From: Strongyloides papillosus
Taxonomy: Eukaryota; Nematoda; Chromadorea; Rhabditida; Strongyloididae
DNA length: 64,000 bases
Reading direction: 5' to 3'
Assembly: GCA_005656395.1 (NCBI GenBank)
Contig: SRSI01000079.1
Span: 1,178,001-1,242,000, forward strand
Positions within the stretch are counted from its first letter, which is position 1, and each line of letters begins with the position of its first letter. Under the pieces are notes generated by a model, which was not told the origin of the DNA, searched no databases, and saw only the letters and a program-made list of their open reading frames with translations. The position numbers and the translations under genes were made by a program. Shown piece after piece: positions 14,025 through 36,537 of this stretch.

Positions 14025-14925
14025 TTAAAAGATTTTGCTTGGATTTTCTTTATATTTACCCATTGGAGAAATTACACAAACAGTAATAACACCTGTTTTA
14101 CTTCCATAAACACCACAGCCGATATGTGTACTTGATTTCCAAATTAGCCTCGTGAATGGTAGGTTAATTATACCTCTCATAAAATAGTCATCTTTGAGTG
14201 ATTCTTCATCTGTACGCCATTTTTTAATTGGATTATACTCTCTATCCGGAGGAGAAAAATAGTATAATCCATTTAATGGAGCTTTAGGTGTTTTCCCTGA
14301 AAAATTATTAACATAGATCTGAGCATATTTTTGGAGTTCCTTGGACAACGTAACATTTACTTTAAGTGGTGGTTTCGAATATTTTTTACGTAGTGCATTA
14401 ATATCACGGTAAAGCTATAAACTATCATAAGGTTAATAATTTACTCACTTGATATTTCATTTTAATGTAATTGGTAACTCTTTTCTTTGGTTTTGAAGTA
14501 GCAACTTTCTCAGGTCTTGTAGTAGTAACTCTCTTAGACTTATTAATAGTAATTTTCTCAAAGTTTTTAGATTCAATTTTCTTAGCTATTTTTGTTGTAT
14601 CTTTCTTTGGTTTTTTGGAAGTAACTTTCATCTTAAACTTGGATACTACAGTTTTATACTTCTTACATTTCTTAGTTTCTGATTTCTTTTTTTTCAAACA
14701 AGCTCGTCGTGTTTCTCGATCATTATCTTTATCATACCTTGTCATCAAACTAGACTTAGAAATACCTTCTCCAATATTTTTTGAAGAATAAGATTTACCA
14801 TTCGGTTTTAATTTTACTAACAAACCATCTTCTCTTGCTTCTCTATTTTTAAATGCTTGACATTTATTAAAGAATATAATGGAAAAAATTAATATAATTA
14901 ATAGATAATAACTATAAAAATTCAT
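14025..14925 (-). CDS. CAP-1: secreted CAP/SCP-TAPS protein
   Basis: Leftmost member of the array. Exon 1 is 14925-14449 (159 codons), the intron is 34 nt (GTGAGT...TATAG) and exon 2 is 14414-14025; the product is 288 residues. Exon 1 encodes a signal peptide (about residues 1-24, ending NKCQA), an acidic/basic pro-like stretch with ETRR where others have QQKRQ, and a long Lys/Thr-rich linker. Exon 2 encodes the CAP core: LYRDINALR, VNVTLSKELQKYA, PFTRLIWKSSTHIGCGVYG and a final VISPMGKY, a variant of the family's 'ITPRGN'. The linker is the longest among intact copies and the C-terminus is short. CAP assignment rests on the WKSS..GCG and SP.G. signatures in order and spacing. Function is not known; secretion is inferred. 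Confidence 0.85.
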
Positions 14926-15379
14926 ATTAAATGATTGTTGAAATAACTAAAAAATAACATTTATTGTTTTTTTTTATTTGTTTCATAATGAAATTATTGA
15001 AAATATTATCTTCTATAGTATAGGGACATATTTTTGTTTTCACTAGACAGCAGGTGGTAAAAAATATTTGATGTTTTTATGTTTATAACTTTGCAAAATT
15101 TTTTCTTTGAAGAAATATAAATATATATTTCTTTCAATTTAAATAATCACTTGTCAATCTATTCTTTGTATGATGTTATATATGTAATTTTTTTAATTTT
15201 AAATAAAATATTTTACTTATAAAATACGAAATCAACATGACGTAATATTCATAGTAAACTATTTTATAGTAGATTGCAAAAAGTGCAAAGTAATTCGATG
15301 AAATTCTATTATTATTAAAATATTTTTTTATGATAAAATACTTTTAATGCTGGTATTGTATCGTGTTTTTGAATATCTT
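14926..15379. other. Intergenic spacer CAP-1/CAP-2
   Basis: Holds the CAP-1 upstream element (15014-15071, listed separately) and the 3' flank of CAP-2, including a diverged copy of the array's 3'-flank repeat around 15225-15290. No gene. Confidence 0.5.
15014..15071 (-). promoter_or_regulatory. Conserved CAP upstream element, CAP-1 copy
   Basis: Most diverged copy. In gene orientation it has TTACCACCTGCTGTCTAGTG, then AAAACAAAAA, then a TATA-like stretch, about 90-145 bp before the ATG. The E-box-like core is CACCTG instead of the usual CATCTG. Confidence 0.6.
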
Positions 15380-15822
15380 CTAATCAGCTTGATAAAATAC
15401 ATTTTCATCATATCCTTCTGGAACATTTCCTCTTGGGGTAATTCTACAATATGTGAAGATACCATTTGTACCTCCATAAACACTACAGCCGATATGAGTA
15501 CTTGGTTTCCAAATAAATTTCGAGAAGAATAGATCAAGAAAACCCATTTCAATATTTTTATTAGTTAAAAGATCTTTATTTTCAGACCAATATTTTATAG
15601 AATAATATTTTTCATGTGGAGAACAAAAATACATCAATTCGTCTCGCGTTAGTTCGGGAAGTCTCAAAGTTATATCATTTTTAATATATCTCATAGCAAA
15701 CTTTTGAAATTCAATTGAAAGAGTCATATTGACTATAAGTGGTTTCACATAATATTTTATGCGTAAATTATTAATATCATGGTAAAGCTATAAAATATCA
15801 TGAAGGTATAGTAATTTACTTA

Positions 15823-16098
15823 TACACAAATTAAAAATTCATTTTTTAAAGATATACATATCAATTTATGTAAAATTGTATTACATTTACAAAAAATGAA
15901 TATTAACAAAAATGTATTCAATTGTTATATAATTTTACCTAAAAATGTATAACATTTCTACATAAAATTGTGCCTATACAAAAATTAGTAAAATTGTATT
16001 ACAAAATTCCTTAAATTGTTATCACATTTTTAAATGAATAGTATGACAATTTGCACTAGATTGCAACCTTAAATGGCAGGATTTTTAATTTTTGTACA
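15823..16098. mobile_element. MITE-like element, left copy
   Basis: About 276 bp, starting TACACAAATTAAAAATTC and ending GGATTTTTAATTTTTGTA, so its own ends are inverted repeats. The inside is rich in short 'ACAATTT/AAATTGT' palindromic blocks. Non-coding. Aligns over its whole length with the copy at 17211-17506. Confidence 0.7.
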
Positions 16099-34019: not shown

Positions 34020-34847
34020 TTAATCCCAATTTAATATATTTTTTCATATTCTCATATTATATTCTTTCTTGGAGTAATTCTACATAAAGTAGTGATACCG
34101 TGTTCGTTTCAATAAACACCACAACCAATATGTGTACTCGATTTCCAAAGTAATTTGGCGTAAAATAGATCAATCGTATCACCGTAAATATATTCATAAG
34201 TTAAGAATATTGCATCTTCAGGACAATATCCTATATGATCATAAACTTCACTAGAAGCATAATAATAATATAAATCTTTTGGTTCTAGTTTCCGAGGTTT
34301 TAAAGTCTCATCATGTTTAACAAATCTCACAACATATTTTTGAAATTCTAGTGATAGAGTATCATTTATTTGAAGTGGTGGCATGAAATATTTTTCAAAT
34401 AGCTTATTAATATCATTTTAAAGCTATGAAATAACATAAAAGTATAGTATTTTACTTACTTTAAATTTCAATTTTAGATATATACTGACAAATGCTTTAT
34501 TTGGTCTTTGGGTAGTAACTTTTCTTTTGAGCTTATATGAAATACTTGACGATTCTGAAGATTATTTATTTTTTTTAATATTCCTTTTACATCTTTCTTA
34601 GCTTTTCCACTACTTTTACTTCCACTGACTTGTCGCTTTTTTTATCATTATTTTATTCATACTCAGATATCTTACCAAACTTAACTTCTCTCATATTTCT
34701 TGAAGAATAAGATTCATCATTCAGCTTTAATTTTACCAAAGAACTATCTTCACTTGTGTCATCTTCAAATGCTTGATATTCAATAAAGAAAGTAGCAAGA
34801 ATAATTGAAAAAACTAACAAAGTGTTACTATAAAAATTCATTTTCAA
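34020..34847 (-). pseudogene. CAP-11: decayed CAP gene
   Basis: Paralogue of CAP-9. Exon 1 remnant is 34847-34460, intron 34424-34459 with intact GTAAGT, exon 2 remnant is 34423 to about 34020. Exon 1 starts well (signal peptide ending FFIEYQA) but loses a base near 34655 relative to CAP-9 and stops after SEYE, so the dibasic site and linker are lost. Exon 2 has a TGA where siblings have the Gly of GCGVYG (34109-34111), a second stop after PRKNII near 34050, and GYCPED in place of GYWSKD. At least three independent breaks make this a clear pseudogene. The upstream element is still present. Confidence 0.9.
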
Positions 34848-35706
34848 TAATTGTTAAAACATTTTAAAAAAAAATATCTTTTTTGTTGTTTCAGGTATTT
34901 ACTTTTACCTAAAGTTATTGAAATTAATCTTTTTTTAGCATAAAAGGGCAAATTTTTTGTCTTCCTAAAGAACAGGTGTTAAAATTACTTGATTTTTTTT
35001 TCATGGCTTTTGCTATAAAAATTATTTATCCCGAAGAAATAGTGGTATCTATTTTTGCATCAATGTGATGTAGAAAATTTATTTTGGATGTAGTTATTTA
35101 AAAAAAGTATGATTAAATAAAAGAGATTGATTATTTAATCTATCATTTCTTTTATTTATAAGCACCTTGTAATTTCACAGAAATGAAATTGATTAATTCA
35201 CTTTATTTTATTCTATTACTATCTGTAATATTGTTATTGATAATAAATAATATTAGAAATATCCTAAATTTTTGATATTATACATGTCAAAATATTAAAA
35301 ATTTCTAATGATAAGCTTCATGGTATAACACACAATCTAAATTTAGAAAATTTTGAGCATTCTTATTAGAAATGCTGCTGATTTTTTGACGAATTGTAAA
35401 TGATAACAAAGTCGCAAACTATTTGTATCATTATGATGTAAAAAGTCAGTTTTACTAATGATAAAGCGGTATTTTAACAAATGTTGTTTATTATGTAAAA
35501 AAAATTTCCCACTATATATTGATAGATTATGTTATGAACCTGTTGTAATAATATTAGCAGATTTTATTATAAAAGATTTTGAAAAATGGAAAATAACTTT
35601 GGCACATTAAATTCTTTTATTCTCAAGATATTTTTTCAAGTATTTATTTTATGATAAAGTATTTTTAATGGTGATTTTGTTTCGTATTTCTAAATACTTT
35701 ATATTC
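34848..35706. other. Intergenic spacer CAP-11/CAP-12
   Basis: Contains the CAP-11 upstream element (34937-34993) and the CAP-12 3'-flank repeat around 35430-35580. No gene. Confidence 0.5.
34937..34993 (-). promoter_or_regulatory. Conserved CAP upstream element, CAP-11 copy
   Basis: In gene orientation TTTTAACACCTGTTCTTTAG, GAAGACAAAAAA and TTTGCCCTTTTATGC. Kept although the gene is decayed. Confidence 0.6.
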
Positions 35707-36537
35707 TCAATCAAGTATACTAGTTTCTCTTAGTCCTATGATATTTGCTATTGGAGTAATTCTGCAAAAAGTAACGATACCGTATTCATCTCCATAAACA
35801 CCACAACCAATATGTGTACTTGTTTTCCAAAGAAGTTTCGTGTAAGACGAATCAATTTCACTATTTATAAAAGAATTATCAGTTAATAAATACCCATCTT
35901 GGGACCATTTTCTTATAGGATCATAATCTTTACCTGGATAACAATAATAGTATAATTCTTCTAATGGTGGTCTCAGAGGTTTTAAAGTTTTATCAGCTTT
36001 CATAAATTTGTAAGCATACTTTTGGAGTTGTATTGATAGAGTCTTATTGACTTCAAGTGGTTTCAAAGAATATTTTTCGCGTAGTTCATTAATTTTATCA
36101 TAAAGCTATAAAATATTATGAAGGTATGATAATTTACTTACTTCATATTTCATTTTAATATATTTACTACGTTTTTTTCGTGGTTTTTTAATAGTACTTT
36201 CCTCGGGTCTTTCAGTAATATCTTTCTCTCGTTTTTTAGTAGTATCCTCCTTCTTAGACTTAGATGCTTCAGTTTTAGATTTCATAGATTTTACTTTCTT
36301 CTTCTTCATAATGGCTTGTCGTTCTTGTTGATCATTATTTTCATAATACCTATTTGTCATACAAGACATTAAACAATCATCTATAATGTTCCTTGAAGAA
36401 TAAGATTCATTATTCGGTTCTAAATTTGACATGGCCCTATTTCTACCTGCTTCCTTATTTTCATATGCTTGATATCCAATAAAGAGCATGGAAATAAAAG
36501 TTGAAATAATTAATAAAGTTTTGCTATAAGAATTCAT
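35707..36537 (-). CDS. CAP-12: secreted CAP/SCP-TAPS protein
   Basis: Rightmost array member. Exon 1 is 36537-36142 (132 codons), the intron is 36 nt and exon 2 is 36105-35707; the product is 264 residues. Signal peptide ends FIGYQA; CLMSC pair; QQERQ; Lys/Thr/Glu linker. Exon 1 is nearly identical to CAP-10, but exon 2 has diverged: LYDKINELREKY, LSIQLQKYA, LYYYCYPGKDYDPIRKW, YTKLLWKTSTHIGCGVYGD, CRITPIAN. The C-terminal block that is PRGNIKG..ENIF elsewhere is PIANIIGLRETSILD here, so the CAP C-terminal signature is lost without a frame break. Head-to-head with the second 79-aa ORF. Predicted secreted. Confidence 0.85.

What the first reader, a model, noticed from the sequence alone, without database searches (positions are those of the whole stretch)
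14025..36537. Twelve-copy tandem CAP array whose domain seems to lack the CAP metal site
All copies keep the CAP framework (ELQKYA helix, IWKSS..GCG, C.ITPRGN, ENVF). By eye alignment to GAPR-1, the His in 'GHFTxxVW' is replaced by Phe, Tyr or Pro (LFYTKLLW, LFFSKLIW, NLPFTRLIW), and the stretch carrying the first His and the GEN Glu is missing. The domain is only about 120-135 residues. The family as a whole may therefore have given up the His/Glu cavity while staying secreted and expanding. CAP/SCP-TAPS expansion in Strongyloides-type parasites is known; this compact, linker-bearing, cavity-less subfamily is my inference.
Basis: partly seen in the sequence, partly recalled or inferred. Interest (0 to 1): 0.75.

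Follow-up and report, generated by a model that had tools for sequence, protein, structure and literature searches.

The report
Tandem array of metal-site-less CAP genes
A livestock threadworm carries a row of twelve copies of a secreted CAP (venom-allergen-like) gene that lacks the usual metal-binding histidines; this loss is older than the array and common in such worms, but some copies have visibly swapped their front and back halves with one another.

The parts
14449..14925 (-). copy 1 exon 1: signal-like N-terminus, pro-region (RETRR), basic linker
   Evidence: UniRef P0009 identical over its length
14025..14414 (-). copy 1 exon 2: CAP domain, tetrad positions T-G-D-P
17507..17874 (-). 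copy 2 exon 1, 5' piece; separated from the splice-site end by an insert
15823..17506 (.). 1,684-base dispersed repeat inserted in exon 1 of copy 2
   Evidence: 136 matching stretches in the genome
15380..15787 (-). copy 2 exon 2: CAP domain, R-E-N-F (20 bits, under the Pfam cut-off)
18723..19040 (-). copy 3 exon 1
   Evidence: UniRef P0005 identical
18279..18686 (-). copy 3 exon 2: CAP domain, E-E-D-F
20980..21267 (-). copy 4 exon 1
   Evidence: UniRef P0007 identical over its length
20513..20941 (-). copy 4 exon 2: CAP domain, K-D-D-P
22665..23069 (-). copy 5 exon 1 with an in-frame stop just before the usual donor site; UniRef model P0018 uses an earlier donor
22222..22626 (-). copy 5 exon 2: CAP domain, K-D-D-F
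24384..24863 (-). copy 6 exon 1 with a 33-base repeat linker
23977..24345 (-). copy 6 exon 2: CAP domain, ends early, K-D-I-F
   Evidence: UniRef P0002 identical over its length
26277..26594 (-). copy 7 exon 1
25830..26240 (-). copy 7 exon 2: CAP domain, K-D-D-P
28228..28545 (-). copy 8 exon 1, near-copy of copy 7's; GC-AG intron follows
27783..28190 (-). copy 8 exon 2: CAP domain near-copy of copy 9's, K-D-D-F
   Evidence: UniRef P0001
30361..30756 (-). copy 9 exon 1
   Evidence: P0017 identical
29917..30324 (-). copy 9 exon 2: CAP domain, K-D-D-F
32046..32465 (-). copy 10 exon 1 with 24-base repeat linker
31611..32009 (-). copy 10 exon 2: CAP domain, K-E-D-F; modelled
34424..34871 (-). copy 11 exon 1 region with intron, 82% identical in DNA to copy 9's
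34020..34423 (-). copy 11 exon 2, stops inside (2 TGA, 1 TAA): degenerate
36142..36537 (-). copy 12 exon 1, 5' part a near-copy of copy 10's; 24-base repeat linker
35707..36105 (-). copy 12 exon 2: CAP domain, K-E-D-S

Best explanation
This is a birth-and-death array of single-domain SCP/TAPS (CAP, venom-allergen-like) genes of Strongyloides papillosus, of the 'non-CRISP-like' kind without the His of the metal tetrad. Shown: two-exon structure with a short intron (34-38 bases where placed); exon 1 gives a signal-like N-terminus, a pro-region and a basic Lys/Thr/Ser-rich linker, exon 2 gives the CAP domain; both tetrad His absent; fold kept in a confident model of one copy; loss older than the array; 5' and 3' modules recombined between copies 7, 8 and 9, with the switch in the linker, and a weaker case in copies 10/12. 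Inferred: the dibasic site (KR in 6 of 9 spliced copies) is cut so that the mature protein is a basic tail plus a CAP domain; the protein is secreted by stages inside the host and acts by binding a lipid or host ligand without the tetrad, as SmVAL4 and HpVAL-4 do for sterol; recombination in the linker puts different CAP domains behind different upstream and secretion modules.
Against: No expression, proteomic or binding data for these genes were seen. Secretion rests on a hydrophobic N-terminus, read by eye. The KR site is missing in copies 10 and 12 (QER), and copy 1 has RETRR. dN/dS of the 11 exon-2 pairs printed, of 55 possible, ranges 0.37-1.01, so constraint is weak and some copies may be decaying. 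Metal-independent sterol binding is not universal among CAP proteins: sterol binding by Pry1 is Mg-dependent and that of BmVAL-1 is inhibited by EDTA, so tetrad loss could also mean loss of that activity. Foldseek's own overlay is looser, TM about 0.7. Model coordinates could not be inspected, so the cavity was not measured. No tandem repeat was found in the linker of copy 8, so repeats are not needed for the exchange there.
Confidence: 0.65

Rival explanations
1. One reading: a compact, cavity-less subfamily that itself gave up the His/Glu cavity while expanding and gaining a linker.
For: Both His absent in 11 of 11 readable copies; the helix that carries the second Glu is broken in the model, H63-67 and H76-80 against H63-76 in the control.
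Against: Domain not compact; tetrad already absent throughout the enclosing 43-row clade; basic repeat linkers also on tetrad-bearing copies; tetrad-less solved CAP proteins keep a cavity.
Confidence: 0.1
2. The site is altered, not lost: Asp/Glu at both glutamate positions with other side chains still hold a divalent ion such as calcium.
For: Position of the first Glu is Asp or Glu in 10 of 11 copies and that of the second is Asp in 9 of 11; four S. venezuelensis relatives (P0003, P0006, P0008, P0013) and the degenerate window copy 11 have a His-Asp at the end of helix 2.
Against: That His is five residues before the tetrad position by a gapless count made by eye and is absent from the 11 readable window copies; no second His in the 11 readable window copies or in the 8 S. 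venezuelensis relatives that reach the position; coordinates not inspected.
Confidence: 0.15
3. The array is largely decaying: relaxed selection on redundant copies, the mosaics being neutral by-products of unequal crossing-over.
For: 3 of 12 copies carry lesions and copy 6 ends early; dN/dS up to 1.01 in the pairs printed.
Against: 8 of 12 copies have open exons and placeable splice sites, one of them with a GC donor; relatives of the array are kept in S. venezuelensis; 10 of the 11 pairs printed have dN/dS under 0.9.
Confidence: 0.2

Closest known systems
Helminth venom-allergen-like proteins of the non-CRISP-like kind (SmVAL4, PDB 4p27; HpVAL-4, PDB 5wee)
   Different: Low identity in the structural overlay (14% and 11%); no basic repeat linker is mentioned in the passages read.
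GAPR-1 (PDB 1smb) and Pry1 CAP domain (PDB 5ete, 5jys)
   Same: Closest solved folds by sequence profile and by structure.
   Different: They carry the tetrad (Pry1; GAPR-1 from the alignment); window copies do not.
Tetrad-bearing CAP paralogues of the same genome, C1:4233-4245 kb
   Same: Neighbouring copies, signal-like N-terminus, basic K/T repeat linker, CAP domain in a separate exon, in my exon predictions.
   Different: Full H-E-E-H tetrad.
S. venezuelensis SCP-domain proteins (P0003, P0006, P0008, P0012, P0013, P0016, P0019, P0020, P0021)
   Same: Pre-pro-linker-CAP layout with a KR site in the 8 that have an N-terminus; 5 of 9 were placed in a tree and fall inside the window clade; no second tetrad His in the 8 that reach it.
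   Different: Own copies, 42-63% identical to copy 3's protein for the seven long ones listed; some have His-Asp at the end of helix 2.

Membership tests
CAP / SCP-TAPS domain (Pfam PF00188) | Score over the curated Pfam cut-off | tested here: met
   9 of 10 copies submitted pass; copy 2 at 20 bits against 21.1; copy 12 passes; copy 11 not tested alone
CAP / SCP-TAPS domain (Pfam PF00188) | Alpha-beta-alpha sandwich fold | tested here: met
CRISP-like CAP proteins with the metal tetrad | Two His and two Glu at the tetrad positions | tested here: not met
   0 of 11 window rows; 17 of 111 rows in the genome
Non-CRISP-like helminth VAL | CAP fold, tetrad His absent, secreted | tested here: inconclusive
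   Fold and absent His met; secretion only inferred from the N-terminus and from database models
Non-CRISP-like helminth VAL | Sterol or fatty-acid binding without the tetrad | not testable with these tools
   Known for sterol in SmVAL4 and HpVAL-4
SCP/TAPS expanded and raised in parasitic females of Strongyloides | Higher expression in parasitic than free-living females | not testable with these tools
   102 of 205 S. papillosus SCP/TAPS genes are raised in parasitic females (PMC5979966); which genes was not seen here

The most novel reading that the evidence does not exclude
The array is a domain-shuffling system: the basic linker, just before a tiny intron, acts as the crossover zone through which CAP domains are moved between upstream/signal/pro-region modules, so that the worm keeps re-pairing expression and secretion modules with new tetrad-less CAP domains that diverge fast. 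(Lowered from 0.3 to 0.25 on checking: a tandem repeat was found in the linkers of copies 10 and 12 but not in that of copy 8.)
Probability: 0.25. Interest if true: 0.55.

Novelty: new member of a known kind. Interest (0 to 1): 0.33.

Why it matters
Astacins and CAP (SCP/TAPS) genes dominate what parasitic females of S. papillosus, S. ratti and S. stercoralis switch on (PMC5979966), yet CAP biochemistry is obscure. That most of the copies read in one genome lack the metal site argues that metal binding cannot be their common job, and gives 17 tetrad-bearing and 75 His-less natural variants for comparison. The mosaic copies show a concrete way in which the family diversifies, and warn that trees or expression assignments that use only one exon can mislead.

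Tried and rejected
Rejected: that the first-His/GEN stretch is deleted; that the linker marks tetrad-less genes; that the array lost the tetrad itself. Left open: an alternative metal site. The plus-strand ORF at 33224 and 37296 was tested as a possible mobile element: only 2 matches in the genome, both in the array, and no Pfam match for the first, so it is probably part of a duplicated unit of copies 10 and 12.

Weak points of my own counts. The 111 domains are not a random sample: 54 of 175 places were not obtained, one search scored only 150 of 257 candidates, and 21 rows come only from a search with a window domain. Over the 90 rows that come from the family search alone the figures are 17 with the tetrad and 55 with neither His; over the 100 rows outside the window 17 and 64. 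Allowing one or two residues of shift in the earlier set of 102 gives 18 or 19 with the tetrad and 64 or 63 without either His. For copies 10/12 a faster-evolving exon 2 instead of exchange is not excluded: synonymous distance is 0.10 before the linker and 0.33 in exon 2, a weaker contrast than for copies 7/8, 0.12 and 0.79. Switch points were estimated on a low-complexity linker and are approximate. Only copies 7, 8, 9, 10 and 12 were aligned for that test, and five triplets tested. In one search, of 7 tetrad-bearing rows with enough upstream DNA, 3 gave a basic linker, 1 (C20:588556) a non-basic exon, and 3 no exon; the exons are my own predictions.

Close relatives outside S. papillosus and S. 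venezuelensis did not appear; two S. ratti proteins matched at 27-28%, but that search needs shared five-residue words, so absence there is weak. No paper describing this array or exon swapping in Strongyloides CAP genes was seen in the listings; the 2016 Strongyloides genome paper was not held. Passages of PMC10138266 gave nothing on this array.

Error corrected: I turned some fetched loci the wrong way, so 14 rows were dropped as having stops; two searches showed this. One search repeats the survey: 175 places, 111 distinct domains, 54 not held, 2 with real stops, 8 duplicates. The trees rest on the earlier 102 domains. One search stopped with an error after printing its BLAST results; the identity part was rerun. 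One search was an empty script.
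Full report
What the window is. Nine published S. papillosus SCP-domain proteins returned by the searches correspond to nine window copies. Of the nine spliced copies compared, copies 1, 3, 4 and 6 are identical to P0009, P0005, P0007 and P0002 over the database entries' length; copy 8 matches P0001 with no substitution and 10 gap columns, where the database model chose another splice site; copies 7 and 10 differ from P0010 and P0004 by 8 and 2 substitutions, copy 10 also by an 8-residue linker gap; copy 12 had no close entry. 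Copy 9 is identical in both exons to P0017, and exon 2 of copy 5 to the end of P0018. The window is therefore from Strongyloides papillosus, at G000:C3:1178001-1242000 of a 58.2-Mb assembly.

The array. Twelve exon-2 units lie on the minus strand from 36105 down to 14025. Where a donor could be placed the intron is 34-38 bases (for copies 3-10 and 12; for copy 1). Copy 8 has a GC donor. Exon 1 encodes a hydrophobic N-terminus, a roughly neutral pro-region of 40-51 residues, and a basic linker of 33-87 residues with net charge +8 to +27 (nine copies). The pro-region ends in QQKR in 5 of these 9, LQKR in one, RETRR in copy 1 and QERQ in copies 10 and 12. The exon-1 DNA of copies 1, 5, 6, 9, 10 and 12 holds tandem repeats of 24, 33 or 57 bases, and the linker of copy 10 differs in length from that of P0004. 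Copies 2, 5 and 11 carry lesions: a 1,684-base dispersed repeat in exon 1, a stop codon close to the usual splice site, and stops in exon 2. The database model P0018 of copy 5 uses an earlier donor, so that copy may still be read. Copy 6 ends early. The other eight have open exons.

Tetrad. Using tetrad-bearing copies of the same genome as a guide (H in 'AHDP', E in 'GEN', E in 'WYDE', H in 'GHFTQ'), three alignments (A2) agree for the 11 readable window copies: K (8), T, E or R at the first His; D (6), E (4) or G (1) at the first Glu; D (9), N or I at the second Glu; F (7), P (3) or S (1) at the second His. No window copy of these 11 has a His within five residues of either His position. The profile of 60 domains aligns GAPR-1 and Pry1 through this region with only short gaps, so the region is present, not deleted. 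The span between two conserved landmarks is 114-123 residues in the window and 116-136 in 17 tetrad-bearing copies.

How common is the loss? The genome search with PF00188 scored 150 of 257 candidates and all 150 listed are over the family cut-off. With 25 further places from a search by a window domain, 175 places were considered; DNA for 54 was not obtained, 2 had true stops and 8 were duplicates, leaving 111 domains. Of these 17 have all four residues and 75 lack both His; over the 90 from the family search alone, 17 and 55. The window rows form one clade (100/99), next to a few single copies elsewhere in the genome, inside a 43-row clade (100/95) with no tetrad, 41 of 43 without either His. 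So the loss is older than the array. Nine S. venezuelensis relatives were found; five were put in a tree and fall inside the window clade. None of the eight that reach the position has the second His (P0013 ends before it). Four of the nine, and the degenerate window copy 11, have a His-Asp at the end of helix 2, five residues before the tetrad position by a gapless count by eye; I do not count this as the first tetrad His, but it is an uncertainty.

Linker. Basic, K/T/S/P-rich exon-1 linkers occur in tetrad-less relatives on C43, C68 and C4, and also in tetrad-bearing copies at C1:4233111, 4239061 and 4245267 (3 of 7 tetrad-bearing rows examined there). Linker and tetrad loss are thus not coupled. 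Those upstream exons are my own splice predictions.

Mosaic copies. Copy 8 is 99.3% identical to copy 7 in the 300 bases upstream and 97.6% in the 251 bases from just before the ATG, but 69.6% in exon 2, where it is 94.1% identical to copy 9, which is only 73.9% in early exon 1. Among 520 informative sites, 259 of 266 on the left side with copy 7 and 205 of 254 on the right with copy 9; 0 of 2000 permutations reached the observed statistic; the switch lies near 28270, inside the linker. Copies 10 and 12 are 98% identical upstream and 96% in early exon 1 but 76% in exon 2, with switches near 32133 and 36172-36190, also in linkers; the five triplets tested gave 0 of 2000 each. Synonymous distance before the linker and in exon 2 is 0.12 and 0.79 for copies 7/8, 0.10 and 0.33 for 10/12. 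An assembly error in copy 8 is unlikely, since the published P0001 shows the same combination.

Comparison with what is known. SCP/TAPS genes number 205 in S. papillosus, 102 of them raised in parasitic females (PMC5979966, passages read). A review states that the majority of available plant and animal parasite VAL sequences lack the tetrad His and that sterol export does not need them (PMC6193718, passages and one section read). SmVAL4 and HpVAL-4 are solved examples that keep a large cavity (PMC4118828 and PMC5893428, passages read). Against this, sterol binding by Pry1 depends on Mg and that of BmVAL-1 is inhibited by EDTA (PMC4921858, passages). The array is a new member of a known kind; the exchange of modules at the linker was not seen described for these genes in the searches named under Tried and rejected.

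Function. Most likely, by analogy and not shown, these are secreted host-interaction proteins that bind a lipid or another ligand without metal. I put about 0.35 on that specific activity and much more on family, fold and tetrad loss.

Noticed in passing
window 33224-33508 and 37296-37580, + strand: Two 94-residue open frames, 99% identical over the 77 residues compared, upstream of copies 10 and 12; only these two matches in the genome and no Pfam match for the first.
   Followed up: partly
window 15823-17506: Dispersed repeat inserted in copy 2; 136 matching stretches genome-wide, the longest other one 86% identical over about 1,240 bases; AT-rich inverted repeats some 100-160 bases inside its ends.
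   Followed up: partly
window 43698-51507, + strand: Gene for a type I fatty acid synthase (ketoacyl synthase, acyl transferase, pseudo-KR, zinc-dehydrogenase type, KR, ACP and thioesterase domains) in a stretch of 35-39% GC against about 25% around.
   Followed up: no
window 12027-13219, 9162-10049 and 72-1367, - strand: M14 zinc carboxypeptidase (Pfam run on 12030-12662), Fringe/galactosyltransferase-like gene, and a rhodopsin-type GPCR.
   Followed up: no
L031 and L032 (C1:4231-4250 kb): Neighbouring tetrad-bearing CAP copies, three of them with long basic repeat linkers (KRKLTTKRRTTP type); a natural control set.
   Followed up: partly
window 28191-28227, copy 8: GC-AG intron; the database model P0001, and copy 5's model P0018, use an earlier donor instead.
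   Followed up: partly
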